This document shows, piece after piece, positions 21,411 through 46,932 of a DNA stretch of 64,000 nt. The stretch spans positions 1 to 64,000 of the forward strand of contig JAEUJZ010000067.1 in NCBI GenBank assembly GCA_016794505.1, written 5' to 3'. The first letter of the stretch is position 1. Each line of letters begins with the position of its first letter. The notes under the pieces are model-generated. The model ran no database searches. It was not told where the DNA came from and was given only the letters and a program-made list of their open reading frames with translations. Source of the stretch: Myxococcales bacterium. Its GTDB lineage: Bacteria; Myxococcota_A; Polyangia; Palsa-1104; JAEUJZ01. The position numbers and the translations under genes are program-made.

Positions 21411-21803
21411 GAAACGGGAAGCTGGGGACACGATTGCAGAGTATCTCTCTGTCGACACTTGGCCACCTACAAAATGGCGCTGCGGACTCAGACTGCGGAT
21501 CCCATGCAGTCCCCCGTCCGGTTGCTACCTAGTACAGAGCTAGGGGCGCACGGACTCAGGCTACCTATGGCAGGGAAGCGCGGCGTGTCCGCTCCGCTGT
21601 TCGCTGCGCTGCGCACGCTGAGCGAACAGTGTGCGCACAGCTGTCCCGCAGGGCACCCCCCACGCAGGCCCAAACAGGACGCCGCTGCTCTCGGCCGGCC
21701 GTCGGTCCGATCTGGGAAGCCCCACGCGGTGGAAGCCTGGTCAGAGTCTTGCAGGAATGATCGCCCACTGGCTCGCCGCACAGGCAGCCCGCAAGTGGAG
21801 TGG
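21411..21803. other. Shared upstream region of two divergent kinase genes
   Basis: This region separates the starts of the two kinase genes. The plus-strand frame of the second kinase stays open through it, but the encoded residues have no domain character and the best start is the ATG at 21804, behind a GGAG. A perfect 10-bp palindrome, TGTGCGCACA, lies at 21631-21640, with a TGCGCA core also at 21611-21616. The palindrome is related to, but not identical with, the TGCGCGCA elements before tssB. Confidence 0.45.
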
Positions 21804-23219
21804 ATGCGCGTGCAAGCCCCAGCCATCGAACAGTCCATCGACAACTATGTCCTTCTGCGGCGTCTGGGCGACGGCAGCATGGGCGCCGTATACGAAGCGC
21901 GACACACCCAGATCGAGCGCAGAGTCGCCATCAAGATTCTGCACAAGGAGCTTTCAGACGATCCAGAGATTATTCAGCGCTTCACCAACGAAGCGCGCAT
22001 CGTCAACATCATCGGCCATGCCGGCCTGGTCAGCATTACCGAGTCCGGGCAGACGCGCGACGGCAGCCGTTACATCGTCATGGAGTATGTCGACGGCATC
22101 AACCTGCGCGACTATGTGGCTGGGCACGGTGGCCGTCTACCCGTCGAGCACGTGCTGCGTATCACGCGGCAAGTGGCGTCGACCTTGGCCGCAGCACACG
22201 CCAAACAGATCGTCCATCGCGATCTGAAGCCCGCCAACATCATGCTCGTGCGCGAAACCAGCGATCGCGAAGTCGCAGGCGGTGATCCAGCGGCTTCCTC
22301 GGCTCAGCTTCCTGATGCGCTTCCTGAAAAGCTTAAGATCCTCGACTTCGGAATCGCCAAGATCATCAACAACGGACTCGGCCAGACGCGAACCGGCGTC
22401 GCCATGGGGACTCCGATTTATATGTCGCCTGAGCAGTGTCGCAGCGGCCGCAATGCCGTCGACCGCAGCGATGTCTATGCGCTGGGCGTCATCGCCTATG
22501 AGCTACTGGCTGGAGCCCCGCCCTTTCAGGGGGGAGCGGCCGTGCTCATGGCAGCGCACTTGATGCAGGATCCGCCTCCTCTTTTGGATCAGGCGCCGCA
22601 GACTCCGCCCGCACTGGCCCGCCTGATACACGCGATGCTGGGCAAGAGTCCCAACGATCGCCCAAGCGCAGCCGAAGTAGCCCGCCTGCTTGCCGAGCTA
22701 GGCGGGGCACGCACCACCGCGTCACAGGCCTATGCCATTCTGCCAGGAGAGCGACAGAACACAGCGCACTCGATGGACTCGCTCGGCGAAGAGGCGCAGT
22801 CACAAGCCGATGCGCAGTCCGCGCTGCATTCCGTCCCCCTGCGCCTGCGCGGCAAGCTTCTGGCAGCGAGCGCCGCGTTTCTGCTTCTGCTCGGATCGCT
22901 TCTGGTCTTGCTGCTGTGGACGCTCACGCGGCAGCCCGTGAGCCCTCCGACCCCTCACGCCCAGCGTCCGCGCAGCTTGCCTCTTGGGCCGATTGGCCAG
23001 GCCAGCTCAGACCCAGCCAATCCCCAAGCCAGCGACGGCGGAACGGCCGCAGATGCGGGCGCGACCGGCCAGGGCGCCGTCGGATCCACAAGTCACAACA
23101 CGCGCACCACAGGCTCCTCGCTTGGTACGTCGACGGCTCCAACAGGCAGCCGCAGCAAAGCCAACCCCAGCAAGACTAAGAAGAAGAAGCCGAAGGGATC
23201 TCGCCGTTCCACAAAATAA
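21804..23219 (+). CDS. Hanks-type Ser/Thr protein kinase, single-span membrane type
   Basis: The ATG at 21804 follows GGAG at a good distance and gives 471 residues. The kinase domain (about 13-300) has GDGSMGAV, ATP-binding Lys44 (VAIKIL), HRDLKPAN with catalytic Asp140, DFG with Asp181 and MGTPIYMSPEQ. One transmembrane helix spans about 352-374. The part expected outside the inner membrane is Ser/Thr/Gly/Pro-rich and ends in a very basic Lys/Arg tail (KTKKKKPKGSRR). The gene's 3' end overlaps that of the tssG-like gene on the other strand by 44 bp. In T6SS loci such kinases (PpkA type) regulate assembly through FHA proteins; here that role is inferred from position only. Confidence 0.85.
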   Translation: MRVQAPAIEQSIDNYVLLRRLGDGSMGAVYEARHTQIERRVAIKILHKELSDDPEIIQRFTNEARIVNIIGHAGLVSITESGQTRDGSRYIVMEYVDGINLRDYVAGHGGRLPVEHVLRITRQVASTLAAAHAKQIVHRDLKPANIMLVRETSDREVAGGDPAASSAQLPDALPEKLKILDFGIAKIINNGLGQTRTGVAMGTPIYMSPEQCRSGRNAVDRSDVYALGVIAYELLAGAPPFQGGAAVLMAAHLMQDPPPLLDQAPQTPPALARLIHAMLGKSPNDRPSAAEVARLLAELGGARTTASQAYAILPGERQNTAHSMDSLGEEAQSQADAQSALHSVPLRLRGKLLAASAAFLLLLGSLLVLLLWTLTRQPVSPPTPHAQRPRSLPLGPIGQASSDPANPQASDGGTAADAGATGQGAVGSTSHNTRTTGSSLGTSTAPTGSRSKANPSKTKKKKPKGSRRSTK

Positions 23220-24144
23220 TCGTGCGCACGCTGCGCGTCGGTGCCTTCGCCGTCGCACCGGAATGAAGCGGTACATACCCCAGAAATTCCCGCGGGCGCA
23301 GAACCAGAAAGTTCCGCTGGTCGCGCAGGACCAGCGCCACCTGCAGGTGAATCCCGTGTCCGGCCAAAAGCGGAATGATCTGTTCCTTCATTCGACGCTC
23401 TGCTTCCTTGGGCCAGGGCTCGCCCGCACCGCTTATGGCTTCGTCAGCAAACAGCTTGATGGCGATGCCAGAAACCGGAATCTGCGCCTGTCCGCCCAGC
23501 GCCGCACCATCGCCTAGCTGCCACGGTCCCAAGCGCACGCTGCGTGTGCTCACCGTCCGCATCATGTTGATCCGCTGCACAGAGACCCCAAGCTCAGGAA
23601 AGATCTGATCGAAGATCCAGTGCAGTGCATACGTCGTGCGCAGTCCCAGCATGCTGCGGACATCCGACAGCGTCTCGGACCAGCTCGACAGCAAGGCGGC
23701 ATGGCGCTCGGGAAACTGCCCCAGCACAAGCTGAGACAACAGATGATGGGCAAAAAAATTTAGGAATCCCGTCAGCGCCCCTTCGTGCTGCCGTTCGATC
23801 ACCTGCTGGAAATAGGAAGGCAGCGGACTCTGCGCGGCCAGTAGTCCGATGTTCAAGATCACATGGACGCGGCGCTGCGGTGGACGGGCAAAGTGTACCG
23901 CCTCGATCACACTCGTCTGATGGGCGCTCGTGGCATGGCTGGCGAACTGGATCTCGGCTTCGCGGTAGCCTAGCGCCCCCAGAGCATCCAGCAGTGCCGA
24001 CAGACCAAAGCGTCGAGCCCGCTCACTGATGGCGCGCTGCATGCGCTCGGACTCCGATTCTGCGCTGGCCTGTATGCTTCCTGCGGTGGCCCGAGATGGC
24101 TTCGCATGGCCGTCGCTGCGAACCTCTCTTCGCTCGCTGGCCAT
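23176..24144 (-). CDS. tssG: T6SS baseplate protein TssG-like
   Basis: The 322-residue product is divergent, but the central segment (NIGLLAAQSPLPSYFQQVIERQ, then GALTGFLNFFAHHLLSQL) matches the family hallmark of TssG/VasB: a G-x-x-GPLP-like turn followed by a helix that ends in FLDIFHHR. The C-terminal half has the expected beta-rich region (RLGPWQLGDGAALGGQAQIPVSGIAIKLF). TssG, together with TssE, TssF and TssK, forms the cytoplasmic baseplate wedges. The N-terminal 35 residues look disordered. The ATG lies 2 bp after the stop of the tssA-like gene, and this is the last gene of the minus-strand T6SS run. The assignment rests on motif pattern and context. Confidence 0.6.
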   Translation of the reverse strand: MASERREVRSDGHAKPSRATAGSIQASAESESERMQRAISERARRFGLSALLDALGALGYREAEIQFASHATSAHQTSVIEAVHFARPPQRRVHVILNIGLLAAQSPLPSYFQQVIERQHEGALTGFLNFFAHHLLSQLVLGQFPERHAALLSSWSETLSDVRSMLGLRTTYALHWIFDQIFPELGVSVQRINMMRTVSTRSVRLGPWQLGDGAALGGQAQIPVSGIAIKLFADEAISGAGEPWPKEAERRMKEQIIPLLAGHGIHLQVALVLRDQRNFLVLRPREFLGYVPLHSGATAKAPTRSVRTIILWNGEIPSASSS

Positions 24145-24146
24145 GA

Positions 24147-25615
<1,469 letters not shown>

Positions 25616-25619
<4 letters not shown>

Positions 25620-26044
25620 CTGCTTCCTCCCATGCTCGGACCCGGCACCCCTGGCAGCGGCTTTTTGAGCATGTTGTCACGCATGCTCACGGTCTGCTGC
25701 ACCGTGTCTAGGATGCGGACCGTGCCGCCATACTCACAGGCCAGCGTGGCGCTCTGTTCCAACAGCGGAACGCCGTGCAGCGTCACAAAGTCGACTTCGT
25801 CAGACCAAGGCTGAGGAAAGCGCGGCGTGCAGGGCTTCTGCCCGCTGGGGTTCTGCGCCTGCGGGTTTGCCACCGCCGTACAGCCATAAAAAGGAGGAAT
25901 GTTGAGAAGCGGCAGGCAGTCATCGACGGTCGCCAGCGAGTTCTGGCGGCTGCTTCCCGCTCCTTTTTCTGAGACGAACAGGCTTACTTCACCGAGACCA
26001 CACGAGCAGTGCAGCTTCGCTCCACCACAGACTGGGGCAGGCAT
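25616..26044 (-). CDS. DUF4280-family PAAR-like spike-tip protein
   Basis: The 142-residue product matches the DUF4280 layout: an N-terminal GAKLHCSCG, a DDCLPLLNIPPFYGCT segment, NPQAQ...PCTPRFPQPW, and a C-terminal LACEYGGTVRILD. These proteins are PAAR-like caps that sit on VgrG or related spikes, and they replace classical PAAR proteins in several contractile systems. Here it is the only PAAR-type gene in the T6SS operon. The gene sits 1 bp after the AMP-ligase-like gene and overlaps the tssA-like gene by 4 nt (ATGA), so all three should be translated together. Confidence 0.8.
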
Positions 26045-26045
26045 G

Positions 26046-27872
26046 TCAGACTCCTACTTTCCCGGCCAACTGCCGCAGCAGCAGCAAGCGACCGGCGGGC
26101 GTCGCGACTCGGTGACACGCAAAGTTCAGCTCATCCACCAAGGAAAGCACCGGATCGGCCGCCCGCCGTGCCAACTGGCCGCTGCGCAGCTGCTGTTCGC
26201 ACCACCCAAGCTGTATTCCTTTTTCATTCCGTCGTGGCAGGCAGGCCAGCACCTGCACGTGCGTCGGTACATAGTCCACGCCCAGTCGGCTGCGGATCCG
26301 CTCGCGAATCGCGTGCTCGATCTGCAGAAAGAACGTCTGCGACTGGTGGCGCAGGTGCGGGCCAACAAAGACCAACAGCGTCGACGTACCTCGGTCGCTG
26401 GGATCGGCGACGACCGCCGCCCCCGCGACATACGGAACCGCCGCCGTGACCTCTTCCACTTCATCGCGGGCATGCGATGCGCCGCCGCGCGATGGAAAGC
26501 GTGTCCCGCCATAGATATAGCCCCCGGCATGCTCATACAGCAGCAGCCCACAAGCCCCCGGCAGCGGCCGCAGGATCCCATGGGGTCCTTGTGCCGACGC
26601 ATCGTCGTTGCGCGGATCGCCCAGCAGAAAGGGCCGTCCCGGTGCTGGGTACACGATCTGCGGCAGCTCTCCACGCTTGCGCAGCGAAAATACCAGCGCC
26701 CCCGCGCAGGCTGCGTCATAGTGCCAGGACAAAAAAGGAATCCCCCGCAGCCGCGCTTGGTCGATGAAGTCCTGCCACACGATATCCCCCAGGCTCTCGC
26801 AGACCTGGCTCACGCACAGCCGGACCTCATGCAAGGGCCGCGCAGACTGCTCCACCCAGTGATCGCGCAGCCGCTGGTTCACCAGCAAGACGTCGATCGT
26901 CGGTACCGCTCGCACGCGCGTGGGCAGCTCGACCAGCGTCGCTGCCGACACATGCAAGAACGTCGCGCCGTGCAGCAGCACGGTCAATAGCAGCATCGGC
27001 TGGTACTGCAAAAAGGAATGTTCTGGGGCGGCCAGTATCCCGCTGCCCTGGTGCAGGCCTAGGATCAGACCGTCATCCAAGGCTCCCAAATACACGGCCT
27101 GCGCCGCCACGGCCTGCGCCGCCCACGCCGGATCGCGCAGCGGCGAAAAACACAGAAGCGCTGCCGAGCGCGGCGGGTACGAATGGGAAGCCCCCGCCTC
27201 CTGCCGCACTCCGTTTCGCAGCTCAGCAGCGGCCGAAAGCGCCGCAGAAAGCTGCGGCCCCGGACTGGCTGGCTCGGGCAGGACGGCCTCTTCCAAGGGC
27301 ACCTCTCCTGCATGTACCCACTCGCGCAGAAGCGGCAGATAGCGACGCGCAGTCACCACGTGTTGCGGCCGCAGCGCCCGCAGGCGCTTGCCCAAAAAGT
27401 CCGCGCCCAGCGGGGGCAAGACGCAGGCGACCAGGCCCAGCTTCAGCGCGGCGCACAGCGCCACCAAAAGCTCGGGCCCCAGGGGATACAGAATGCAGAT
27501 GCGCTCGCCCACTTCTGCCCCCCTTTTTTGCCAGGCATCGGCAAGGACACTCGCCGCCGCATGCAGCTGCGAATAGGTCAGCGCCTGCAGTCCACGCCCT
27601 GGTTCCGAAAATCCGTCCGCCGCGTACAGCAAGCAGGGCCGATCGGCCGCGGGTCCCAGCGCATGCCGCAGTACGGCATCATGGAACAGGTCATACCCCA
27701 CGCTAAGCTGCGTCTTGGGCGGACTCTCGGCTTGCTCGGCAGCATCGCGAAACAGGGCGCGAGCAAAGCCCAGCGGGTCCGCCAAGCTGGCCTGCAGCCA
27801 CGCGCGCTGGCGCAGGATTCCGTCCCCGGTAGGTCGCAGGACCTGACGTACCTCTTCGATCGTAAACGGCAT
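26046..27872 (-). CDS. Degenerate AMP-ligase (ANL/FAAL-like) protein inside the T6SS operon
   Basis: The 608-residue product follows the overall plan of adenylate-forming ligases: LTYSQLHAAASVLADAWQKRGAEVGERI and the ALKLGLVACVLPPLG segment (about 110-170) match the N-terminal domain of acyl-AMP ligases, and the C-terminal subdomain keeps AAVVADPSD, LLVFVGP and a LPRRNEKGIQLG stretch like the A10 lysine motif. The nucleotide-binding P-loop (T-S-G-x-T-G-x-P-K) is absent; AALLCFSPLRDP stands in its place. The A5 Y-G-x-T/A-E and A7 T-G-D motifs are also missing or changed. It is therefore probably not a working ligase but a binding or scaffold protein. It lies between tssJ and the DUF4280 gene and is tightly packed, so it belongs to the T6SS operon. 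Confidence 0.65.
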   Translation of the reverse strand: MPFTIEEVRQVLRPTGDGILRQRAWLQASLADPLGFARALFRDAAEQAESPPKTQLSVGYDLFHDAVLRHALGPAADRPCLLYAADGFSEPGRGLQALTYSQLHAAASVLADAWQKRGAEVGERICILYPLGPELLVALCAALKLGLVACVLPPLGADFLGKRLRALRPQHVVTARRYLPLLREWVHAGEVPLEEAVLPEPASPGPQLSAALSAAAELRNGVRQEAGASHSYPPRSAALLCFSPLRDPAWAAQAVAAQAVYLGALDDGLILGLHQGSGILAAPEHSFLQYQPMLLLTVLLHGATFLHVSAATLVELPTRVRAVPTIDVLLVNQRLRDHWVEQSARPLHEVRLCVSQVCESLGDIVWQDFIDQARLRGIPFLSWHYDAACAGALVFSLRKRGELPQIVYPAPGRPFLLGDPRNDDASAQGPHGILRPLPGACGLLLYEHAGGYIYGGTRFPSRGGASHARDEVEEVTAAVPYVAGAAVVADPSDRGTSTLLVFVGPHLRHQSQTFFLQIEHAIRERIRSRLGVDYVPTHVQVLACLPRRNEKGIQLGWCEQQLRSGQLARRAADPVLSLVDELNFACHRVATPAGRLLLLRQLAGKVGV

Positions 27873-27921: not shown

Positions 27922-28356
27922 TCAGTTGCGGAATATCCGACACTCCCGTACCCGCTCGGCATCGACGCCCAGTCGTCCCAATGGAACGGTGATTCGCCAG
28001 GGCAGATCCGGCTGCAGCCAGACCTTCCAGCTTGCGGTCGGCGCCGTATAGAAAAAGTACAGAGCCAGCGGACTGCTCTTTTTGCTCTTGATCCAAAAAG
28101 CGCGCGAACCGCGCTTGCTCGGTTCGATGATCAGCGAACGCAGAACGCTGGCGTCCGGCTTGATCACCAGCGCCGAGACACTGGCGTACGACTCGCCGCG
28201 AAACTGTTGTTCGTCGACGCTGCGCACCAAGACGCGCAGCGGTCTGCCCTGATTGCTGTCGTCATCGGCTCGCAGCGAAATGCGGATATAGCCCGGCAAG
28301 CACCCTGCCGACAAAAGTGCGCACAGAAAAAGGAATGTCGACGGTACGCCGACCAC
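27922..28356 (-). CDS. tssJ: T6SS outer-membrane lipoprotein TssJ
   Basis: The GTG at 28356 gives 144 residues: a short lipoprotein signal (STFLFLCALLSAGC, lipid-carrying Cys at about residue 17) followed by a small beta-sandwich (IRISLRADDDSNQGRPLRVLVRSVDEQQF, then PSKRGSRAFWIKSKKSSPLALYFFY and DLPWRITVPLG). The order strand, Pro-Leu-x-Val-x-V-x-x-L, Phe/Tyr-rich strand is that of TssJ/SciN, which binds the TssM periplasmic domain. Position directly after tssM supports this. The stretch before the GTG is open but overlaps the end of tssM. No good Shine-Dalgarno is present, so coupling to tssM translation is likely. Confidence 0.7.
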   Translation of the reverse strand: MVGVPSTFLFLCALLSAGCLPGYIRISLRADDDSNQGRPLRVLVRSVDEQQFRGESYASVSALVIKPDASVLRSLIIEPSKRGSRAFWIKSKKSSPLALYFFYTAPTASWKVWLQPDLPWRITVPLGRLGVDAERVRECRIFRN

Positions 28357-28381
28357 CCTCCGTCCACCATCGACTCGGCGC

Positions 28382-31300
28382 TTAGGGTACTCGGACACGG
28401 AACAGCTCCCATGGATCGGGGTGTACGACAAAGCGGATGGCCTGGGTGTCCTGTCCGGCTTCGCCATGGATGTACCAGGTGCTGATTCCCGATGCATCCA
28501 GCGTCGAGCGCTGCAGCAGTCGAAACAGGCTCCACGCCGAGTCCGCCACTTCCAAGGTCTGCGTATGCTTGCGGCCCGTGCGCGCCACCACGCTTTCGAT
28601 TCCCAAGACCGCGGCCCCTTGCTGCCACCAGTCAATCGAAAGCGGCGTCTGGCTCGCTTGTTGATTGAAGCCATAGGCGGCGGCTTTTCCCACCTGCAGA
28701 TAGGCCAAGGCCGCTTGCGCATTCTTGCCATCCGCGATCTGTGGACCGGGAACGCCGCGCAGCCCAAGCTGCAGAGGCTGGCGATTGCCTTCGCTGGAAA
28801 ACAGCGCTCGCGACAGTCGCGCCAGGCGGTTCACCGTCGGCAGAAAGTCTTTCGGCAGGCGCAGCGTGCCCAGGGCCCCGGCTCGCGCGCCGTACGTCCC
28901 GCCTTGCTCCAAGACCGCTGCGGCATAAAGCGTCCGAACGTCGTTGAACAGCGGCCCTTTGCGTTCGCTGATCAGATCTAGCTCGGATGGCGCCACCTCG
29001 CGCTCGGCCCCCGGATTGAACGGAAAGCGCGCCAGCATGGGTTCGATCTGACCGTTCATGGTGTCGCGCCAGCGGCTCGCCATGACCCGCTCGATCTCGT
29101 CAGCTCCCGCGTGGTACGCCGCCAAAAAAGGAGCGAGAAAGGGGCGCCGCAGGGACCCGGCAATTCCCGCCTGATCCAAGAACTGCTCGGCTTTGCGCAG
29201 CGCCGAGTCCTCTTTTCCTTCATGCATGGCGAGCGCACTCTGCCCAATCGGCGAAAGCACCGCGCGCAGAGCGGCTCCACTTTCGGCAGCCGCCGCAGCG
29301 CCCCCAGCGCCCCCAGCGGTGCGATCTAGCTCTTCGATCAGCTTGCTTACTGCGGCCTTGTATCCAGCAAGTCCTTCCGGCGATCCAGAAGCTGCCCCCG
29401 ACGATGACGCGGCACTGGGCGTAGCTGCGCTGCCCGTGCCGCTTGCCGCTGCTGCTGTTGCTGCTGCCGCTGTTGCCGGCGCCGTCGCTTGCGCCTTGCC
29501 ATCGCCCGCAGGCTTCTTGTCCGCCCCTTGTACGTCGCGCGTCGGCGGTCCGCTCTTGCTGGCAACCAACTCAACCAGCGGCTTGAACTCAGCGATGCAC
29601 TGGGCCAGCGGCTGCAGGTAGGGCTCGTCCAGTCCCGGCAGCGTCGCGTTTTCGGCCACCACGTGCAGTCGCGCCACGAACGGCGAGCCCGGCTTGATCA
29701 GATCCAAAAGCTCACTGTGCAAAGCTGACGCAGAGTGTCGGTTGATTTGATAGCCCAGGTGATAGTTCAACAGCGCAAGGCAGTACCGTCGCGAATACCC
29801 CGACAGCTCACTCTGCACCAAGCGCGACAGCTCGATCTTTTCTTCCGCGGTCAGGTTGCGATGGCTGCTCAACGCCTTCTTCAGCTCTTGCACCAGCGGC
29901 AGCACTTCGCGCTGATACACGACGCGGTTGTAGATATCGGAAAGGCCGGCCGCAGGCAGCTCATTTCCCGTCAGAAGAGCTGCCAGCTTGGGCGTAAATT
30001 CCTCTTTGCTCCACAGCGGCAGCGATGCGCCGCGCGCTCCACCGCGCACGGTGTGGTCCGTCTGTTCCTTTTCATTCCTTTTTTTGCGAGATTCCTTTTT
30101 TTCGGCACGGCCAAGGCTTAGCCGTTCCTGTCGACTGCATGGCCGGCGATTGGGGTATCGGCGCGACGGCGTACCGCAGCGCTCGCGTACCGTCTGCGTC
30201 CGGCGGGATGTTGGCTCGTCCGCGCTGTCCCATTCACCGCGCAGACCCCAGGGTGAAAAGGTGCGCTTGCGGCTGCGCGAGAGCAGGTCTAGCCAGTCCC
30301 GCGCTTTGATATCCAGCGCGGCGCCGTCCCCCGGAAAGATGAAGTGCCAGGCCGAGCCATCGCTGGCACTCGGCGAACCCGCGGTCGCTGGGCTGCCTTC
30401 GTTCAGCCAGCGCAGAAGCTGATACAGGCTCTTGGTGCTCGCCTGTTCGACCTGCAGGCTGGACACGCGCACCATCTTTAACACCGGATCCAGCGAGTCC
30501 TGCGAGTCGGTAATCCAAGGATGCGGCGCGAATACGCTGTGATCGCGGCCAAACAGCTTCAGCATGTCGAGCGGTGATTCCTCAGCTAGGTTGCGATACA
30601 TCTGGCGCAGCAGGGCGGAACGCCGGACGTGCAGAAGGGCCTCTTGCAGACGCGCGCTCTCGTTTTGCAGCGACTGCAGCTCGCCATGCGTGATGAAGGG
30701 ACGCTGGATGTCTTGCTGCACGCGCGACAAGTACCGCTGCCACGGACCCAGATCCGAGACCATGTCGCGCAGCTCGGACTGCGGAAGCGGCGGCAGCGCC
30801 ACCACCGCGACTTCGGACCACGGGCTTGCGCTGTACTTGATGTAGTCCAGCAAGGTGTCACGTGGCACCGCAAGATCATTCGCCCAGTCTGTCGGCTGCG
30901 CTGCGACCAGGGCACCCAGCGTGTTTTCGCGCGTGGCATACAGCGCAACCAGCGCTTCCAAGATCTTGTCGCGAGCCCGCTGCCGAATCGTCCGCTCTAG
31001 GCTCGGCAAAAGGTACGCTCGACGGATGCCTTCGACGAAGCGCCGCTCGCTCTCGCGCTTGTCGGGGCGATACAGAAGTCGCAGCGGACGAAAGCGTGAC
31101 TCCGCCGCTTGCATGGTCAAAAGAGACTGCCGCATCCGCTGCTCGGCCCGCCGCACCACATCGGACTCACCACTGCTCTGCAGAGTCAGTGCGCGATCGA
31201 CGCTCTGCTCAAAGACATCGGCGGCGCTGCTGACCTCATCGACATAAGCGCGATGACGACGCGTGATCGTGGACAGCACACCCAACCCCAAAATCAGAAT

Positions 31301-32389
31301 AAGCCCTCCCAAAAGGACATGCAGTGGGCGCAGTCCCAGGGGCCGCAGCCAGCGCGTTAGGAAGGACCCCAGAACGACACCGCGCTGGCGGGGCGGCGGC
31401 TCAAAAGGACTTCCCACTTGGGCGTCGTTCTGCAGCGTCGAAAAATAGACGCCTTGCACCTCGGGTCGCTGCGATACCACCGAGCCTTCGACCAGCGCCG
31501 ACACAAAGTCTGCCGTCGGACCAAGCAGCTGATCCGCGGTGCGCAGAAACTCCAGCATTCCCTCAAACGACGTCAGGGGCTGCGTCGTCAGCGCGCGGGG
31601 CAGATGTCTCTCGTACGCGGCAAGTCCGGTGGCCAGATCGCTTCGCGGATCGGTTCCGACCTCAAGCAAAAGCGGGATCTGTTCCTTGTGTAGGAATCGG
31701 GCCAAGTCACTGTAGCCGCGTACGCGATCCATGAAGGTCAAACAGATGCGCACGCGCGGCGATGCATCGCACGCATCCGCCAAGATGTTGATCTTGCCGC
31801 GCAGTAGTTGAGCCTGACTGCGCAGCTGATCCGGCGATGCAGCGCTGAGGCTGGCGGCCTGCAGCACAACCACCACCGTAGGAATCTGATCGACATCCAT
31901 GTTTCGCCACAGTCGCTTGAGCGCCTCGTTGATCCCGCGCGATGTGGCGTCCTGCACGATGGCGGAAAACTCTTGCACGACGGTGCGACTGCCCAGATAG
32001 ACCTGCATCAGCGGGTCGGCGGTATAGCTGGGAACGAACTGGCTGGTCTGTCCCTGCCAGTCCACTTTGCGACCGATAAGCGCGCTCTTGCCCGAGGCAT
32101 TGTTGCCAAACACAACGAAGTGCGGATAGGTCGGGACCGCGACGCGGACTGCGCTGGGCAAGCGCGAAAGGAAGCTTGCCCAGATGGTGCGCAAGCGCAG
32201 CGGCGCGATGGCGCGCGGATTGCTGGGGCCGCTGCCAGCCTCGCTGCGCTGCCGCAGACGCCACCACCAGATTCCCAGCGCGATACCGGCGGTAAGAACG
32301 ATCACTCCCAAGATGGCGATGGCGTAGAGCACTCGGGACGACGCAGCAGCCGCCAAGATTACAACACTGGGATGAAGCGCAGCGGGCAC
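28382..32389 (-). CDS. tssM: T6SS inner-membrane complex protein TssM (IcmF)
   Basis: The 1335-residue product begins at a GTG preceded by AGGAGG. It has an N-terminal membrane segment (RVLYAIAILGVIVLTAGIALGIWWW, about 19-43), a cytoplasmic GTPase-like domain with P-loop GNNASGKS (95-102), a second membrane segment around 335-355 (HVLLGGLILILGLGVLST) and a long periplasmic part ending with the TssM C-terminal beta-domain (LGIESVVARTGR, PWELFRVRVP). TssM bridges TssL and TssJ across the envelope. An odd very basic stretch (about residues 706-786) interrupts the periplasmic region, and an Ala/Gly/Ser-rich linker lies around residues 960-1025. The stop is 25 bp before the tssJ start. Confidence 0.9.
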   Translation of the reverse strand: MPAALHPSVVILAAAASSRVLYAIAILGVIVLTAGIALGIWWWRLRQRSEAGSGPSNPRAIAPLRLRTIWASFLSRLPSAVRVAVPTYPHFVVFGNNASGKSALIGRKVDWQGQTSQFVPSYTADPLMQVYLGSRTVVQEFSAIVQDATSRGINEALKRLWRNMDVDQIPTVVVVLQAASLSAASPDQLRSQAQLLRGKINILADACDASPRVRICLTFMDRVRGYSDLARFLHKEQIPLLLEVGTDPRSDLATGLAAYERHLPRALTTQPLTSFEGMLEFLRTADQLLGPTADFVSALVEGSVVSQRPEVQGVYFSTLQNDAQVGSPFEPPPRQRGVVLGSFLTRWLRPLGLRPLHVLLGGLILILGLGVLSTITRRHRAYVDEVSSAADVFEQSVDRALTLQSSGESDVVRRAEQRMRQSLLTMQAAESRFRPLRLLYRPDKRESERRFVEGIRRAYLLPSLERTIRQRARDKILEALVALYATRENTLGALVAAQPTDWANDLAVPRDTLLDYIKYSASPWSEVAVVALPPLPQSELRDMVSDLGPWQRYLSRVQQDIQRPFITHGELQSLQNESARLQEALLHVRRSALLRQMYRNLAEESPLDMLKLFGRDHSVFAPHPWITDSQDSLDPVLKMVRVSSLQVEQASTKSLYQLLRWLNEGSPATAGSPSASDGSAWHFIFPGDGAALDIKARDWLDLLSRSRKRTFSPWGLRGEWDSADEPTSRRTQTVRERCGTPSRRYPNRRPCSRQERLSLGRAEKKESRKKRNEKEQTDHTVRGGARGASLPLWSKEEFTPKLAALLTGNELPAAGLSDIYNRVVYQREVLPLVQELKKALSSHRNLTAEEKIELSRLVQSELSGYSRRYCLALLNYHLGYQINRHSASALHSELLDLIKPGSPFVARLHVVAENATLPGLDEPYLQPLAQCIAEFKPLVELVASKSGPPTRDVQGADKKPAGDGKAQATAPATAAAATAAAASGTGSAATPSAASSSGAASGSPEGLAGYKAAVSKLIEELDRTAGGAGGAAAAAESGAALRAVLSPIGQSALAMHEGKEDSALRKAEQFLDQAGIAGSLRRPFLAPFLAAYHAGADEIERVMASRWRDTMNGQIEPMLARFPFNPGAEREVAPSELDLISERKGPLFNDVRTLYAAAVLEQGGTYGARAGALGTLRLPKDFLPTVNRLARLSRALFSSEGNRQPLQLGLRGVPGPQIADGKNAQAALAYLQVGKAAAYGFNQQASQTPLSIDWWQQGAAVLGIESVVARTGRKHTQTLEVADSAWSLFRLLQRSTLDASGISTWYIHGEAGQDTQAIRFVVHPDPWELFRVRVP

Positions 32390-33062: not shown

Positions 33063-33872
33063 CTACACGTTGGTAAAAAGGAGTACGAAGCCGACCGCCA
33101 CGCCCAGTGCCGCCAGTGCGACGCCGTACGGCGCCATGCTGCGCCAGTCGATGCGGCGCGGCGGTTCTTCGAGCAGCGATCCCGGCGGTGCGGGAGCCGC
33201 ACTAGCCCCTGCTTGGCTTTGCGTGCTGCCCGTCAGCGTCCGCTGTGGACCCGTTCGCGGCAGGCTCAAGGATCGGCTGCGCCGGCTGCTGCGCTCGGTC
33301 TGACCTTCACGCATTCCGCGTGCCGCCCGCCGCCGCTTGCGCCGTTCTGTCGCTGACATCGAGGTCGCGGCGATCTGTTCGGATAGCAGCGTGCGATAGC
33401 GCTGCACCTTGCCGCTGCTCTCACCGAACTTGCCAACAAAGCCCGCCGCCAAGCAGAAGTACAAGACCTCAAACACCATCGGCGGAGTGTCCTGTTTCTC
33501 AAGACGCTCATCGACAAAGTCGTAAAAGACATCGCCGCCATAGTTGATCTGGAACAGCTCGGACTGCAGAAGCGACCAGCGCGTCTGCTGTTCCTTGGCC
33601 AGACGGCTCATCACCATCTCGTCACACAAAAGGACCAAGGGGAACATGACCAGGTAGGTCTCGTTTTCCGTCAGCTCGCGGTTCAGATGTTCGCGCAGCG
33701 CCTCCAGCTTGCTGCGCAGCTCGCTCTGCAAGCGCTGCAGCGTGCCGGGATCGACGGGCGCGGCGACCGTTCGCTCGCCGAAGCGAGTTGTGTCGACGGC
33801 CAGCGTGCGATCGAGCAGCCGCACGATGTCGCTACGCATGGCGATGATCAGGTTCCAGTGGCTGAGCTTCAT
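33063..33872 (-). CDS. tssL: T6SS inner-membrane protein TssL (DotU/IcmH)
   Basis: The 269-residue product has the helical cytoplasmic hook domain of TssL (LVMFPLVLLCDEMVMSR, FQINYGGDVFYDFVDERLE, VLYFCLAAGFVGKFGE) followed by an Arg/Ser-rich linker and one C-terminal transmembrane helix (YGVALAALGVAVGFVLLF, residues 249-266) with only a few residues outside. No peptidoglycan-binding (OmpA-like) domain follows. Its ATG overlaps the tssF stop by 4 nt. The FGESSGKVQRYRTLL segment is the expected family motif F-x-G-k-y-r. Confidence 0.88.
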   Translation of the reverse strand: MKLSHWNLIIAMRSDIVRLLDRTLAVDTTRFGERTVAAPVDPGTLQRLQSELRSKLEALREHLNRELTENETYLVMFPLVLLCDEMVMSRLAKEQQTRWSLLQSELFQINYGGDVFYDFVDERLEKQDTPPMVFEVLYFCLAAGFVGKFGESSGKVQRYRTLLSEQIAATSMSATERRKRRRAARGMREGQTERSSRRSRSLSLPRTGPQRTLTGSTQSQAGASAAPAPPGSLLEEPPRRIDWRSMAPYGVALAALGVAVGFVLLFTNV

Positions 33873-35516
33873 CGTCTCTGCCGCCTTCCTTCTTTCAGCT
33901 CAGCCGGGTCGCTATGGCGAACCACTTCCGAGCGCCCTTCGTAGTTCCATGCGTCCAAGAGCTGTTGCAGTTGCGAGCAGAACGCATCCCAAAGTGGCGC
34001 TTCCTCTAGCGACGGCGCCGAGAGCAGCAGGTGATAGATGTGGCGCATCCCCGCACCGCGCAGACTCTCATCGGGAACCGCCTCAACACGCAGGTCCAAG
34101 AGCCGCGCCGGAAAGCCGCGGAAGGGTCCAGACTCTGTCGTTTCAAGCAGCGAAAAAAGGGCCCGCAGTTCATCCAGACTTAGGACCGCTTTCATCTTGA
34201 GCGCCAGCAGCCGCCGCAGCGCAGCAGCGTCGCGACCTAGCTGCGGCTGATGGCCCACTCGAACCGCACCAAGCACTGACAGCTCGATTCCCGCGACGCT
34301 GCGATCGGGCAGTGTAAAACGCAGCGGACCGTGCAAGTGCATGGCCAAGCTTGGCTGGTGCCACTGGCCTTCGACCAAGATCTGCACCGGATCCAGAAGG
34401 GCGCTGGGAATGCGCAGGATCAGCGCCGCTAGCTCGTCGTCCGCGTGCGAGGGATTGGCAGAAATAGGAATGTGTTCCAGCTCATAGCTGGGGGCAGCCT
34501 GCTGCAGCGTTGCCACCGGAATCGGAATCAGGCCGTCGGCCGTAATGCGATAGACCCCATCGATGGTATGCAGGCGATAGCTGGCATCGGCGTGTACGAA
34601 GTGAATGGGATACGTATCCTGCGTGCCATCACACAGGATGGGCTGCGCCGACGAGCGTCGCAGGTTCATCATCGGAACGACGAAGGGCTGGAACAGCTCG
34701 CGGAACGGCGCCGGTCGCCGCGGCCACTCTGGCGCCATGTCCAAGCAGATCGTGAAGCGGCTCCACGGCCGGGGCGAGGGCGGCACCGCGATCTGCAGGC
34801 AAAGCTCCTGCTGGGGAAAGTGAAAGAAGCTGCGCACTGCGGACAGCGGGTTGCGCTCATCGGCTGCGTACGGCTCGTCGAAGCTGGGCCCGAACTCGAC
34901 CGCGCACGCAGGACCCTCGCTGGCTTCGCTGACCGGAGCGTCGTACACCACAAAGGCCCGCCGCAGATGTGCCCGCAGCTGCACAAATACTGTGAGCGCC
35001 GCCAGATAGTCGTCCAAGTAGTGCAGGCCCAGGCGCAGCGTACCGACGGCATCGGGGCGCGGCAGGCGAGACTGAAACGTCAGCGCCAAGCGCAGGCCCT
35101 GCGGGGCACGCACGATCTCGCAGCGCTCAAGGGACATCGGAACCACGCGCAGCTCAGCCAGCGTCTGAAACGAGGCGACAAAGCCATCGACTGTGGTGGC
35201 CTGCACGGCAGAGCCAGCCGGCAGCACGACGGTGTCGCTCAGGCGTGCCGTGACGTGCGCCTGCAAGAGCGCCATCGCCGGCAGTGGCCGCAGCAGCGGC
35301 TGAAAGTAACTCCCCAAGAGCCGCCGCCAGGTTGCGCGCACGTTGTTGTGCAGCGCCTGCCGCGTTCGCACCGCCGAGAATGCCAGGACCTCGATCAGCC
35401 GCTGCACGTCGGGATCCTGCGCATCGACGCGAGCCAGAGGCTGCTCGCTGGCATAGCGCCGCCGGAATGTGTCGATGGCACGAAGCTCGGCTAGCAAGCT
35501 CTGCTCGAAGGACTCT

Positions 35517-35527
<11 letters not shown>
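33869..35527 (-). CDS. tssF: T6SS baseplate protein TssF
   Basis: The ATG at 35527, five bases after AGGAGG, gives 552 residues. The N-terminus (FEQSLLAELRAIDTFRRRYASEQPLARVDAQDPDVQRLIEVLAFSAVRTRQAL) is the classic TssF opening in which a long helix is followed by a D-P-x-V-x-R-L-x-E motif. Later segments (LPAGSAV, FQPFVVPMMNLRRSSAQPI and YRLHTIDGVY) also fit TssF/VasA. TssF forms the wedge of the baseplate with TssG. The start lies 11 nt inside the end of the upstream giant gene, and the stop overlaps the tssL start, so translation is coupled throughout. Confidence 0.8.
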
Positions 35528-40276
<4,749 letters not shown>

Positions 40277-40280
<4 letters not shown>

Positions 40281-42265
40281 GGCCGCAGGCCTCCCTGCGG
40301 TCCACTCGGAGAGCCCGGTGTCGTTGGTGTCGTTGGTGTCGTCGGTGTCGTCGGTGTCGTCGGTGTCGTCGGTGTCGTCGGTGTCGTCGGTGAGCCCGGT
40401 GTCGTCGGTGTCGTCGGTGAGCCCGGTGTCGTCGGCGTCAGGCTGCCGGGCATGGCTGGTGAGCCCCGCGGCGGCACCGCCGGCATGCCCACGGGCAGGA
40501 CCAGCTTACGGCCCAGCAGCGTCCCGGCGCTGAGCCCCGCGGGCGGCGTACCGACCTGCAGCAGCATATTGCCTTCAGCAATTTTTAAGACTTGATTATC
40601 AAACTGATTCAGACGTTCAATCTCGAACACAGGATTCATATTTTCATACCAATGAACCATGCTCGTACGATTGATAGGTGTCTTGCCAAGCAGCAAATGA
40701 TCGCCCTGTGCGTCCTGCGGCAACTGCGCCGTGGCGCGCCACTCGCGCATTTCGCAGATCATGGCGCGATTAAAAAACATATTCACCAACACTCGTTCAT
40801 ACTTGTATAAAGGAAAATAAAACTGTCCCGGAAGTGTATTTGGATTGTAGGGTGTCGTGATCACCTGATTGGCAAAGACCGGGATCATGACTTTATATCG
40901 CGGAATTTGGCTCAATAACTCAGGATAGTATTGATATGTCTCTTCGATCAGCGTTCCCGCTTCACTGACAACCCGGCCTTCGATGGCCACCGGATAGCGC
41001 GGCAGGATATAGGGTGGCAGACGCAGCTCGGTATCGCTGGCGAGCTCCATCCACACGCTGGTGCGCAGATCAAAGGTGGCCGGAACCAGCCCGTCATAGA
41101 CAGCGGCCACATCGCGTTCCTCTCGCGCTGCCGACAGACGGATGCGATAGACGCGACAGGCTTCCAAAGCGGCCTCGGTGGGAATGGCGATGTCTTCGGC
41201 TTCGAGGTCTTCTTTGTCGATCCGAAAGTCGATGCCCACACCGGGGTAATAGGGCTTGCTCGGAAATGCCCGATAGTGCATGACAAACTCGGGCTTTGGC
41301 ATACGAAACGCTGTGGTGCGATCTTGAACTTCCTTATCAAAGTCACGAATGATCATGGTATTGAATACATGATCCTGGCGCAGCGTGGTGACTTTCTTTA
41401 GGTTATCAATCACGCGATTGCGAACATCCTCGACAAAATCATTCAGGACATTTTTCTGATATCGGGGATATTCGGGGTAATACGTCGCCAGTCCTGACAG
41501 ATCACGCGGAATTAGATCAAAAACAATTGGGCGTGGTTTACTACCGTGAATTTGGTAAACTCTGCGATTGTAATCATAGATAAAAATCTTATCCATCTCA
41601 TCAAAGCGCCACATCAAAAGATCGTAAAAACTGGCGCGTTCGCTGGGGCGATGTTCGCTGTCACAGCCAAGAAAGATCATCGGCTGGACCTGCCCAACTT
41701 CCAGATCGGGATATTCAATGACGATATGCGTCGTGCGATAGCTGTCGATGACTTGGCGCAGAGACTTCTGGGTGAATAGCTCGCAGGGGAAGTGCTGGCG
41801 CCACAGCACCTGGGCGGCGTCGGCAAAACGGACGATATAGCGGCGATAAGAAAGCGGCGCATCGCCGAGCTTGGCCACGTGTTCCGACAGAGCGCGCTCG
41901 CTGACCAGGGCGTGAAGCTCAAGCGGCACGGGCAGGCTGTTGATGTCTTGATCGAGGCGCGCGGCTTGGATCGTCAGGCGCAGCTTGAGCAGATCCGCGG
42001 CCCGAAACAGCGTCAGCAGGGCGTCGCGCTGCTCACTAGCCAGTGCGATGTCGTCGGACACAAGCACGCTGAGCTCACCCGAAAAACCGCTGTGCCGCAG
42101 ATCCAGCGTCAGGTTCTGCACATTGTGACCGGCGAGCACGATGGGCGTCGGCGCGGTGACCGAGCTGAATTCCACACGCAGCACCAGGCCGTCGCGATAC
42201 AGCGGGGCTTCATCGGCCAGTGCCGCGGCAAGCGGCCGCTCGCCGCGGACGGTGTTACGGGGCAC
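40277..42265 (-). CDS. VgrG gp27-like spike base protein with TPT-repeat tail
   Basis: The GTG at 42265, six bases after AGGAGG, gives 662 residues; it overlaps tssE by 11 nt. The N-terminal half follows VgrG's gp27-like base: paired strands (VLRVEFSSVT, IVLAGHNVQNLTLDLRHSGF), LSYRRYIVRFADAAQVLW, CELFTQKSLRQVIDSY and FYDLLMWRFDEMDKIFIYDY, the last matching the VgrG motif in which F-x-R-L-x-E-x-x-G-I-x-Y-x-F closes the domain. Middle parts (YHYRAFPSKPYYPGVGIDF-like strands) fit the OB-fold region. There is no gp5 needle; the chain ends in a Thr-Pro repeat, and the next gene starts in an ATGA overlap with a needle-like beta region. Much of 40570-41700 is less GC-rich than its surroundings. Confidence 0.6.
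40318..40440 (-). repeat. 9-bp repeat encoding TPT tract
   Basis: Units of GGTGTCGTC (plus strand) with interruptions encode Thr-Pro-Thr and Pro-Gly-Ser at the C-terminus of the gp27-like protein. In frame; about 12 units. Confidence 0.85.
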
Positions 42266-42659
42266 GATGCACCTCCTGCAGGCTGCCCAGATCCACCTGT
42301 GCGGCGCCGCTGACCAGGTTGAAGCGCACACCGACGACACAGGGAACCTCACCGCGCGCTGTGCGCAGAAGGCCGCGCAGCACGATATGCAGCGTCAGAT
42401 CGGCATCGCGTCCCAGCGCTTTGATCTCGCGCAGACGAAAGCGCGGCTCGTATTCCGCGATGACGTGCTGCATCTCGCGCAGGATCGAAAGCTGCGCGCC
42501 TTTGCGGCTCTGCTGTCCCAAGTAATCGCCGATGCCGAAGGCGCGCAGCGGCGATGCATACTCGGGCCGGGCATTGAACAGCGCGCTCAAGTTGCGCACG
42601 ACACTGGCGGCGGTGTCATCGACCGGCGGGTTTTCTAGGAAGCGATTTAGGAACGACAT
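42255..42659 (-). CDS. tssE: T6SS baseplate protein TssE (gp25-like)
   Basis: The 134-residue product is the size of TssE and shows its core: FLNRFLE at the start, VRNLSALFNARPEYASPLRAFGIGDYLG, and the YEPRF motif (residues about 70-74; YEPRL in most members) that binds the sheath initiator region. ADLTLHIVLRGLL and FNLVSGAAQVDL are the following strands. It initiates sheath assembly at the baseplate. It lies 9 bp after tssK, and its 3' end overlaps the start of the gp27-like gene. Confidence 0.88.
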   Translation of the reverse strand: MSFLNRFLENPPVDDTAASVVRNLSALFNARPEYASPLRAFGIGDYLGQQSRKGAQLSILREMQHVIAEYEPRFRLREIKALGRDADLTLHIVLRGLLRTARGEVPCVVGVRFNLVSGAAQVDLGSLQEVHRAP

Positions 42660-42668: not shown

Positions 42669-43913
42669 CTAACGCCAGTACAGAAAGACGTTGGCGCGCT
42701 CTAAAGCGGGATGGACATAGAGCGCCAGCGAGCTTTCGCGCAGCACGTGATCCCACTCGTCGCCGCTCTGCAGTTGATAGAAGTCCACTTCCGGCCCAAA
42801 GGTGTGCTGAAACGGCGGGCGCTCGACGTGCTTAAACGGCACGCCGCGCAGCACCAAGCGATGCACCAACGCCAAGCGCGAAGTACACGAGACCTTGACG
42901 TCATCCAGCGCGATGCGCCCGTGCAGCGTCGGTCGTTGCACCAGCAAGTAGACCTCTTGCGCGTCTTTCAGCTCGGACGGCAAGCCGCTTAGTGTGAACA
43001 GGCCGTTGCTGCGCTGGAAGCGCAGGTGCGTCGAGCGCGCGTACACCGGACGCAGCGCTTGCTGCAGCAGACGCAGCACCGTTCCGAAACAGCCGGCCAG
43101 GTTGTCGTGCAGATACGGCAGAACCGGCTGATCGGGAATCACTTCGTGGAAGCAGCAGGCTTCCAGATACAGCTCGCGCAGCGCCGCATGAACGTCATAG
43201 GGATGCATGGGAATGCGATTCCGCAGATCGGCCAGCAGGCACTGGCTGCGGTACAGCGCGGCCAGACAGCGGCGGATGGTCGACAGGCGATCCGGGCGCA
43301 GAAACGTATCCTGAAGCTGGGCCGCTAGCTGTGGCTCAAGTGCGTTGATCTGCGCTTCCAGCGCGGCCAAGGCTGGCTGCAGATGCGGCGTGCTGCCGAC
43401 GTGCAGAAGCGGCGGGATATAGCTTGTGGACAAGGCCCAGCTCCCGGCGACTCCTTTTTCAAAGTCGCCCAGCCGCAGCACCGCCCGCGAGCCATCAACG
43501 CTGTCGCTGATCGAAAGCACGGCGCGCTGCACGATGCGTTCAACGACGCGCGGATCGCTGTCATAGGTGCGGTTGCCTTGACCGGACACGGCATCGGACA
43601 AGACATGCAGATACACGCTGACGCGCGTGGCCGACGTCGCAACCAGGGACAGCGAGCCCAGGCTGCAGTTGCCCGGTACGCTGATCGGCGTGCCATCGGG
43701 AAGCACCGCGGAGAGCTCGCCCAGCGAGAGCACGCCGTCGCGCAGCAGCGACTCGTTGTAGCTAAGTTGGGCCAGCCCATGCATCGGCAGCCCAGACATG
43801 CGGGCTCGGAATTCAATCGCCGCGTCGGTTAGCTGCTGCAGTGCAACAAAGTGCTCGGGCAATACGGTCTGCCCCAAGAACCAGCGCACAGGTGCGATCT
43901 TCAGCGTGCTCAT
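42669..43913 (-). CDS. tssK: T6SS baseplate protein TssK
   Basis: The 414-residue product begins with the family signature VRWFLGQTVLPEHF (W-x-x-G-x-x-L-x-P-x-H-F), and has SGLPMHGLAQLSYN, the ADLRNRIPMHPYDVHAALREL helix (typical TssK P-x-x-Y-x-x-L region) and a C-terminal beta-rich receptor domain (GRIALDDVKVSCTSRLALVHRLVLRGVPF, then FQHTFGPEVDFYQL). TssK connects the baseplate to the TssLM membrane complex. A weak ribosome-binding site precedes the ATG. A 283-bp gap with two inverted repeats separates it from hcp upstream, so transcription may be partly independent. Confidence 0.88.
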   Translation of the reverse strand: MSTLKIAPVRWFLGQTVLPEHFVALQQLTDAAIEFRARMSGLPMHGLAQLSYNESLLRDGVLSLGELSAVLPDGTPISVPGNCSLGSLSLVATSATRVSVYLHVLSDAVSGQGNRTYDSDPRVVERIVQRAVLSISDSVDGSRAVLRLGDFEKGVAGSWALSTSYIPPLLHVGSTPHLQPALAALEAQINALEPQLAAQLQDTFLRPDRLSTIRRCLAALYRSQCLLADLRNRIPMHPYDVHAALRELYLEACCFHEVIPDQPVLPYLHDNLAGCFGTVLRLLQQALRPVYARSTHLRFQRSNGLFTLSGLPSELKDAQEVYLLVQRPTLHGRIALDDVKVSCTSRLALVHRLVLRGVPFKHVERPPFQHTFGPEVDFYQLQSGDEWDHVLRESSLALYVHPALERANVFLYWR

Positions 43914-44196: not shown

Positions 44197-44835
44197 TTAG
44201 GTCGTCGGACCCGTGCGGCCCCAGTTCTTGGTCACCTTGCGCGTCGAAGACGTGGCGAACAAGAGCGGCTGCACGATCGGCTTGGGCACGACCTCCAGAT
44301 CGAACTCATAGTTGATCGGCGACTGCACGGCTTCATCCGCTTCGGGATTGATGGTCATCTTCAGATCGGTACCGTCCTTCTTGATCTGTCCTTTGACCCC
44401 GGTGGCCGTGGCATCGGTATTGGCCTGGGCTGAGTTCGAAAACGCCGCGTAGTACTTTTTCGCCAGCGGATCGTATTCATAGATGACAAAGCCGATCTCG
44501 ACATCGATGTCGATCATCGATGCGTACAGCAAGGCGGAAAACGCTTGCTTGCCGGCGATCGAAAGCAGCCCCTTGAACACCAAGGGATCAGTGTCCCCCA
44601 TGGTCCAGGCGATGTTCTTCAGTACGGCCACCACATTCAGCGCACCTGCCGTCGCTGTGGCCTGCGTGGTGATGCCGCTGGCCGCCGTGACCGCCATCGG
44701 GCTGTTCACCGTGAAGTCGGCCGCGAAGCTCTCGGTTCCGATCTTCAGCATCGTCAGAAAACCGATGGTCTTCTGAAAGTCCTTTTTGAAGTTGAATCCC
44801 TGCGCTGGATCAAGCTCACGCGTAAACTCTGGCAT
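44197..44835 (-). CDS. hcp: T6SS tube protein Hcp-like (TssD)
   Basis: The 212-residue product is longer than the usual 160-170 of Hcp. Position directly after tssB and tssC and before tssK, and alternating beta-strands (VVAVLKNIAWTMGD, DIDVEIGFVIYEYDP, YYAAFSNSAQANT, INYEFDLEVVPKPI), support an Hcp-type ring protein of a divergent branch. The sequence lacks an obvious classical Hcp N-terminus (M-x-x-D-x-F-L-K-I), so I place it by context and fold pattern, not by clear motif. AGGAG lies well placed before the ATG. Confidence 0.6.
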   Translation of the reverse strand: MPEFTRELDPAQGFNFKKDFQKTIGFLTMLKIGTESFAADFTVNSPMAVTAASGITTQATATAGALNVVAVLKNIAWTMGDTDPLVFKGLLSIAGKQAFSALLYASMIDIDVEIGFVIYEYDPLAKKYYAAFSNSAQANTDATATGVKGQIKKDGTDLKMTINPEADEAVQSPINYEFDLEVVPKPIVQPLLFATSSTRKVTKNWGRTGPTT

Positions 44836-46386: not shown

Positions 46387-46932
46387 CTAGGAATTGGGTT
46401 TTGCGGCCGGCAACGCCTTCTGCCTGCTGGGAAGCTGGTAGCTTGAAAGCCCCTCCAGTTCCTGCTGCAGCTTCTTGAGCTGCTCGGGATTGCTCCAGAT
46501 TTCTTGCACCAGGCGACGCAGATCTTTGCGGTTGTCGATGTTCGCCTGTACTTCCAGAAGCAGCTTGCGCAGAAGCAAGAGAGCCCGGACTTTGGGAATG
46601 TTGTTCGCCACAGCTTCCGGGCTGAGCGACTTGCGATTGGTGATCGGTAGCTGAACATCGAGCTGCTCTTCGCTGCTGGGCTCGATGAAGTTCTGCACCT
46701 TGAAGTTCACCGACATGCGCATATTTTCCATGACGCTGTCGATGTTCTTGCCGTCCAGCGATCGCAGGCGACGGCTGTCCAGATCCACTTCTCGATCGAC
46801 CGAGGAACCCCCAGAAAGGTCGGCCAGGATCATTAAACGGAATGGCAGTTCCAACATCTGCGCCGAGCCGTTGATCTCGGTCCGGTATCGCAGGTTGATG
46901 CGTGAGCGCGGAATTTCATCTTGGATCGACAC
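46387..46932 (-). CDS. tssB: T6SS contractile sheath small subunit TssB
   Basis: The best start is the GTG at 46932, seven bases after AGGAG, giving 181 residues that begin like other TssB proteins (SIQDEIPRSRINLRYRTE). LELPFRLMILADLSGG, MRMSVNFKVQNFI, LDVQLPITNRKSLSPEAVANNIPKVRALLLLRKLLLEVQANIDNRKDLRRLVQEI follow the family pattern. An upstream in-frame GTG at 46968 is possible but leaves an unneeded extension. It is the first gene of the minus-strand T6SS run, and its promoter should lie in the 407-bp region shared with the second FHA regulator. Confidence 0.95.
   Translation of the reverse strand: MSIQDEIPRSRINLRYRTEINGSAQMLELPFRLMILADLSGGSSVDREVDLDSRRLRSLDGKNIDSVMENMRMSVNFKVQNFIEPSSEEQLDVQLPITNRKSLSPEAVANNIPKVRALLLLRKLLLEVQANIDNRKDLRRLVQEIWSNPEQLKKLQQELEGLSSYQLPSRQKALPAAKPNS

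What the first reader, a model, noticed from the sequence alone, without database searches (positions are those of the whole stretch)
26046..27872. AMP-ligase pseudoenzyme embedded in a T6SS operon
The product follows the plan of acyl-AMP ligases but lacks the P-loop, the A5 and the A7 motifs, while a possible A10 lysine region is kept. It sits between tssJ and the PAAR-like gene with 1-bp spacing. A catalytically dead ligase fold as a T6SS adaptor, chaperone or lipid sensor would be new to me.
Basis: partly seen in the sequence, partly recalled or inferred. Interest (0 to 1): 0.7.

Follow-up and report, generated by a model that had tools for sequence, protein, structure and literature searches.

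The report
Dead ligase conserved in secretion machine
A protein shaped like an acyl-activating enzyme, but stripped of its catalytic residues, is encoded in essentially every copy we found of one type of bacterial injection machine (a type VI secretion system like that of Francisella), which suggests that an old metabolic fold was recruited as a standard part of the machine.

Summary
The gene is real (window 26046-27872, minus strand, 608 aa). It has the ANL fold (acyl-CoA synthetase, NRPS adenylation domain, luciferase): Pfam AMP-binding in 25/25 relatives, and the AlphaFold2 model matches acetyl-CoA synthetase at E 8e-23. It is catalytically dead as a family: P-loop (A3), A5 Glu, A7 Asp, A8 hinge Arg and A10 Lys are absent in 25/25 relatives and present in active ANLs of the same genome. 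It is not a recent insertion: 28 of 29 relative loci (Myxococcota, Planctomycetota) lie among T6SS genes, 27 with DUF4280 (PAAR-like) or IglI next downstream. Every genome with an IglI-type T6SS carries it (14/14 and 3/3); 45 other sheath-bearing Myxococcota genomes do not. Its divergence tracks baseplate and membrane T6SS genes at the same rate. The machine is Francisella-like, and the ligase stands where Francisella has iglF, whose product binds the PAAR-like IglG and is needed for sheath assembly. Best explanation: an IglF-like pseudoenzyme acting in spike-tip and baseplate assembly. Shown: fold, catalytic loss, conservation, linkage. Inferred: partners and function. Homology to IglF itself was not tested.

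The parts
26046..27872 (-). ANL-fold pseudoenzyme (608 aa), the finding; proposed IglF-like T6SS assembly factor
   Evidence: Pfam AMP-binding and AMP-binding_C; AF2 model and Foldseek; motif loss 25/25
25616..26044 (-). DUF4280 PAAR-like spike-tip protein (IglG-like), 1 nt downstream
   Evidence: PF14107 2.9e-20; IglG model 0.0064; no N-terminal extension
24147..25619 (-). IglI-family protein (TssA-like) with Ser/Asp-rich insert
   Evidence: NF041244 3.8e-51; same model hits ImpA_N of canonical TssA
23176..24144 (-). TssG baseplate subunit
   Evidence: PF06996 1.1e-7
27922..28398 (-). TssJ/IglE lipoprotein (likely GTG start at 28398, lipobox LSAGC)
   Evidence: PF22361 IglE_N 4.3e-17, NF041245 1.5e-8; sequence
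28382..32389 (-). TssM/IcmF (divergent)
   Evidence: PF14331 7.1e-7, TIGR03348 1.6e-6
33063..33872 (-). TssL/DotU
   Evidence: PF09850 3.2e-18
33869..35542 (-). TssF baseplate subunit
   Evidence: TIGR03359 1.5e-27, IglH model 2.6e-7
40277..42352 (-). PdpA/VgrG-like central spike protein
   Evidence: Profile vs PDB: Francisella PdpA 6u9e 1.9e-4; Foldseek 6u9e 2.9e-24
42669..43913 (-). TssK
   Evidence: TIGR03353 3.5e-92
44197..44835 (-). Probable tube protein (Hcp/IglC position), unassigned by sequence
   Evidence: Position and conservation in related loci; no family or PDB match
44857..46350 (-). TssC sheath
   Evidence: TIGR03355 1.1e-145
46387..46968 (-). TssB sheath
   Evidence: TIGR03358 1e-41

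Best explanation
The gene encodes a pseudoenzyme: an acyl-AMP-ligase (ANL) fold that lost its ATP-binding and catalytic residues, most simply once before the family spread, and became a standard part of a Francisella-like (IglI-type) T6SS of Myxococcota and some Planctomycetota. It most likely works like Francisella IglF, helping the PAAR-like DUF4280 tip be loaded on the PdpA/VgrG-like spike and coupled to the baseplate through the TssA-like IglI and TssG, so that sheath assembly can start. Shown here: fold, loss of catalytic residues, family-wide conservation, co-occurrence with this T6SS type, operon and module linkage, co-divergence with T6SS genes. Inferred: physical binding to DUF4280 and/or IglI, role in assembly, functional equivalence to IglF.
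For: ANL fold: Pfam AMP-binding in 25/25 relatives; AF2 pLDDT 77.5, pTM 0.81; Foldseek best 8rpl acetyl-CoA synthetase E 7.7e-23, TM 0.65, 14% identity. Catalytic loss in 25/25. Family is one clade apart from active ANLs, support 100/100. Context: 28 of 29 loci among T6SS genes; next gene DUF4280 in 15, IglI in 12, TssG in 1, one orphan. Co-occurrence: all 14 Myxococcota genomes with IglI over cut-off have it, all 3 Planctomycetota ones too; 60/361 Myxococcota genomes have TssC, so 45 other sheath-bearing ones lack it. Co-divergence: r 0.66-0.94 with TssG, TssK, TssM, TssF, TssL, slope about 1. In the own genome's second system ANL-DUF4280-IglI form a detached module. Spike is PdpA-like. Francisella: iglF directly upstream of iglG, IglF binds IglG (PMC5014421); iglF, iglG, iglI, iglJ needed for sheath assembly (PMC5481754); IglF expression restores assembly in the iglF mutant (PMC6128221).
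Against: No interaction or phenotype data exist for this family. Sequence homology to IglF was not tested (referred). The DUF4280 proteins here lack the N-terminal extension through which IglG binds IglF (PMC5014421). In 12 loci the ANL gene is followed by IglI, not DUF4280. Co-divergence also follows from shared descent of one gene cluster. One relative (G113, L081) lies away from any T6SS gene.
Confidence: 0.6

Rival explanations
1. It is a delivered effector or cargo that rides on the PAAR-like tip and acts in the target cell.
For: Encoded next to a PAAR-like gene in 15 loci; Francisella IglF has been called a putative effector and was reported secreted (PMC5014421, PMC5924787).
Against: Found in every system of this type and diverging at the rate of TssG, TssK and TssM, unlike usual effector turnover; catalytic residues lost; the next recognised gene is a machine gene in 28 of 29 loci, which argues against a paired immunity gene.
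Confidence: 0.15
2. It is a ligand sensor: the ANL fold still binds an acyl chain, CoA or nucleotide and gates T6SS firing.
For: The fold and many core positions are conserved; the conserved DAA-GG segment lies where A5 of active enzymes is.
Against: ATP-binding motifs are gone and no pocket residue was shown to be retained; no regulatory evidence.
Confidence: 0.13
3. It is an active enzyme with a non-canonical mechanism that modifies a T6SS protein, for example by acylation or AMP transfer.
For: A family-specific motif D..W[CVL]..Q..SG.L replaces the A10 region; some pseudoenzymes, such as certain pseudokinases, turned out to have new activities (general knowledge).
Against: All five classic motifs are lost in 25/25, the hinge for domain alternation is deleted, and the motif's Cys is not invariant.
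Confidence: 0.07
4. It is an ordinary acyl-CoA/AMP ligase that happens to sit in the operon.
For: Pfam AMP-binding score above cut-off.
Against: Motif loss in all relatives, clade apart from active ANLs, strict linkage to one T6SS type.
Confidence: 0.02

Closest known systems
ANL superfamily (acetyl-CoA synthetase, acyl-CoA/AMP ligases, NRPS adenylation domains)
   Same: Fold over nearly the full length (Foldseek E 7.7e-23); Pfam AMP-binding and AMP-binding_C
   Different: About 14% identity; A3, A5, A7, A8 and A10 catalytic residues lost in all 25 members; encoded in T6SS operons
Francisella IglF (FPI T6SS)
   Same: Gene directly upstream of the DUF4280 PAAR-like gene in a PdpA/IglE/IglI-type T6SS; similar size (67.9 kDa per PMC5924787)
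   Different: Homology not tested here; iglF lies between vgrG and iglG, and IglF binds an IglG N-terminal extension that the DUF4280 proteins here lack
DUF2169/TvpA chaperones of DUF4150 (PIPY) PAAR-like proteins (PMC11883445, PMC13373197)
   Same: Accessory proteins linked to a PAAR-like gene and needed to make a working spike
   Different: DUF2169 has its own novel fold, not ANL; partners are DUF4150, not DUF4280
mL69 of the kinetoplastid mitoribosome
   Same: A chain of a large machine whose sequence weakly resembles the ANL N-terminal part of P0001 (E 0.032-0.56): an ANL-like protein apparently used as a structural part
   Different: Different machine; weak match, only a parallel

Membership tests
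ANL superfamily by fold | AMP-binding domain plus AMP-binding_C domain | tested here: met
   (AMP-binding 25/25, AMP-binding_C 6/25 by Pfam)
ANL enzymes (catalytic) | A3 P-loop [ST]SG[ST]TGxPK | tested here: not met
   0/25 against 7/7 active ANLs of the same genome
ANL enzymes (catalytic) | A5 Glu (YGxTE) | tested here: not met
   0/25 at the aligned position
ANL enzymes (catalytic) | A7 Asp ([ST]GD) and A8 hinge Arg | tested here: not met
   Asp 0/25; hinge deleted 25/25
ANL enzymes (catalytic) | A10 catalytic Lys | tested here: not met
   0/25
ANL enzymes (catalytic) | ATP-dependent adenylation activity | not testable with these tools
   Needs purified protein
Francisella-like (IglI-type) T6SS, for the operon | IglI, IglE, DUF4280 and PdpA-like spike together with TssB/C/K/F/G/L/M | tested here: met
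IglF family | Sequence or structural homology to IglF | not tested
   Comparison with IglF was referred; no IglF model turned up among family hits
IglF family | Gene directly upstream of the DUF4280 PAAR-like gene | tested here: met
   Window and 14 other loci
IglF family | PAAR-like partner with the N-terminal extension that IglF needs for binding | tested here: not met
   DUF4280 proteins here lack such an extension; binding itself not testable with these tools

The most novel reading that the evidence does not exclude
An ANL-fold pseudoenzyme is a core, obligate component of the spike-tip/baseplate assembly step of all IglI-type T6SSs, and Francisella IglF, whose function is unknown, is a diverged member of the same family.
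Probability: 0.35. Interest if true: 0.85.

Novelty: new variant of a known kind. Interest (0 to 1): 0.68.

Why it matters
If true, a metabolic enzyme fold was recruited as a fixed part of a contractile injection machine, in a lineage that includes predatory soil bacteria. [quoted passage not shown] It also suggests that genes annotated as 'AMP-dependent synthetase' in such loci should be re-annotated.

Tried and rejected
Single-sequence scan of genome contigs found nothing; repeating with an alignment found 12 loci. A guess at an IglF family model (NF041247) was another family. Plasmid records hold no relative. PADLOC has no match. No paper found in the library links an ANL protein to a T6SS, but most subscription papers and preprints are not held. 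TssC copies in G139, G089 and G042 were checked as possible counterexamples (this T6SS type without the ANL gene): they are a different T6SS type, 28-32% identical to the window's TssC. G492, which seemed to have IglI without ANL, has an ANL fragment beside IglI on its 3.4-kb contig. The tube-like protein (44197-44835) could not be assigned by sequence. An ordinary ligase and a recent insertion were rejected on motif loss and distribution.

Full report
Observation. The ORF at 26046-27872 lies on the minus strand, encodes 608 aa and has strong codon-usage support. The product matches Pfam AMP-binding (1.8e-11, residues 77-202) and AMP-binding_C (2e-8, 471-547). Its stop codon ends at 26046 and the ATG of the DUF4280 PAAR-like gene begins at 26044, so the 1-nt spacing is real; the gap to the upstream tssJ/IglE gene is 49 nt.

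The operon. Read on the minus strand: tssB, tssC, a tube-like gene, tssK, a PdpA/VgrG-like spike gene, a 1587-aa protein, tssF, tssL, a 267-aa protein, tssM, tssJ/IglE, ANL, DUF4280, IglI, tssG. The 691-aa protein had no Pfam match, but a profile of its relatives finds Francisella PdpA in the PDB (6u9e, E 1.9e-4) and its AF2 model (lower confidence, pLDDT 66) matches the PdpA-VgrG complex at E 2.9e-24. With IglE (4.3e-17), IglI (3.8e-51) and the DUF4280 protein, this is a Francisella-like T6SS. IglI itself is TssA-like: the IglI family model also picks up ImpA_N of canonical TssA.

Fold. AlphaFold2 on ten relatives gave pLDDT 77.5 and pTM 0.81. Foldseek against the PDB returns ANL enzymes throughout the top of the list, best acetyl-CoA synthetase 8rpl, E 7.7e-23, TM 0.65, 14% identity.

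Catalytic residues. Twenty-five family members were aligned with seven active ANLs of the same genome ('active' means that they keep the canonical motifs). The P-loop TSGTTGxPKG is replaced by a segment such as FSPLRxPxxxP; the A5 Glu is absent (DAAxGG instead); the A7 Asp is absent; about 13 residues of the A8 hinge are deleted; the A10 Lys is absent. Each is 0/25 in the family and 7/7 in the active set, except that two members have a Lys at the P-loop Lys column without the rest of the loop. A regex check independent of the alignment finds the strict P-loop in 0/25; short patterns such as [ST]GD occur by chance elsewhere in some members. The family is one side of a 100/100 supported branch against the active ANLs.

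Distribution. In the same family of genomes, orthologues at 51-53% identity sit in the same gene order, and second copies at about 33% sit in paralogous T6SS loci. Named hosts of relatives include Pyxidicoccus caerfyrddinensis, Corallococcus carmarthensis, Polyangium fumosum and a Planctomycetota MAG. Of 379 Myxococcota genomes, 17 have a relative at E <= 1e-30. In a 361-genome draw, the 14 genomes with IglI over the curated cut-off all have it; one more (G191) has IglI split over contig ends. Sixty of 361 have a TssC match, so 45 sheath-bearing genomes lack the ANL family. If the 15 genomes were independent, full coincidence by chance would be about 8e-27 among all, or 2e-14 among sheath-bearing genomes; related genomes make these figures too small. 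In Planctomycetota, relatives occur in 3 of 294 genomes; IglI is over cut-off in 3, and the one without a full-length hit (G492) has an ANL fragment beside IglI at a contig end. G515 has ANL in a T6SS locus without a recognised IglI.

Neighbourhood. Over 29 loci the next recognised gene after ANL is DUF4280 in 15, IglI in 12, TssG in 1, and none in the orphan locus L081. The own genome holds a second system of this type 14 kb past the window end, without ANL, DUF4280 and IglI; these three form a detached module on another contig (that the two belong together is inferred). This points to ANL, DUF4280 and IglI as a functional unit.

Co-divergence. ANL distances correlate with TssL (0.94), TssF (0.89), TssM (0.83), spike (0.75), TssK (0.67), TssG (0.66) and IglI (0.64), with slopes near 1; the correlation is weaker for TssC (0.39), DUF4280 (0.35) and TssB (0.23, not significant). 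Shared cluster descent contributes, but this is not the pattern of a fast-changing effector.

Mechanism. [quoted passage not shown] The ANL gene stands in the iglF position. I therefore propose that it works like IglF, in preparing the PAAR-like tip and coupling it to the spike and baseplate. The steps after co-occurrence and linkage are inference. Against a strict equivalence, the DUF4280 proteins here lack the N-terminal extension that IglF needs in Francisella, and in 12 loci IglI, not DUF4280, is the neighbour. Whether IglF itself has an ANL fold was not tested.

Known systems. The closest functional parallels are DUF2169/TvpA chaperones of DUF4150 PAAR-like proteins (PMC11883445, PMC13373197). 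No paper found in the library describes an ANL protein in a T6SS; the library is incomplete.

Verdict. The pseudoenzyme claim and its membership in a T6SS are well supported; the function is a reasoned proposal at about 0.6.

Noticed in passing
G000:C5:78.1-93.6 kb (L156, L157) and G000:C174:216.6-220.4 kb (L033): A second T6SS of the same type just beyond the window lacks ANL, DUF4280 and IglI; these three form a detached three-gene module on another contig.
   Followed up: partly
window 24147-25619: The IglI protein carries a Ser/Asp-rich low-complexity insert (about residues 205-346) and is 490 aa against a 290-position family model.
   Followed up: no
window 35517-40280: A 1587-aa protein between the spike gene and tssF has no significant family match and is only partly conserved in relatives.
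   Followed up: no
window 32399-33202: A 267-aa ORF between tssL and tssM has no family match; a gene of similar position exists in the orthologous loci.
   Followed up: no
window 18213-19799, 47340-49034, 19806-21458, 21402-23219: Two sigma-54 activators and two Ser/Thr kinases flank the operon, a likely regulatory setting.
   Followed up: no
L081 (G113) 9058-10803: An orphan family member away from any T6SS gene, in a genome whose T6SS is on other contigs.
   Followed up: partly
L070, L074 (Corallococcus): Cluster is rearranged: ANL-DUF4280 point one way and TssF, spike, TssG, IglI, TssC, TssB the other.
   Followed up: no
window 40277-42352: A gene without Pfam match is a PdpA/VgrG-like spike, showing how diverged this T6SS is from canonical ones.
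   Followed up: yes
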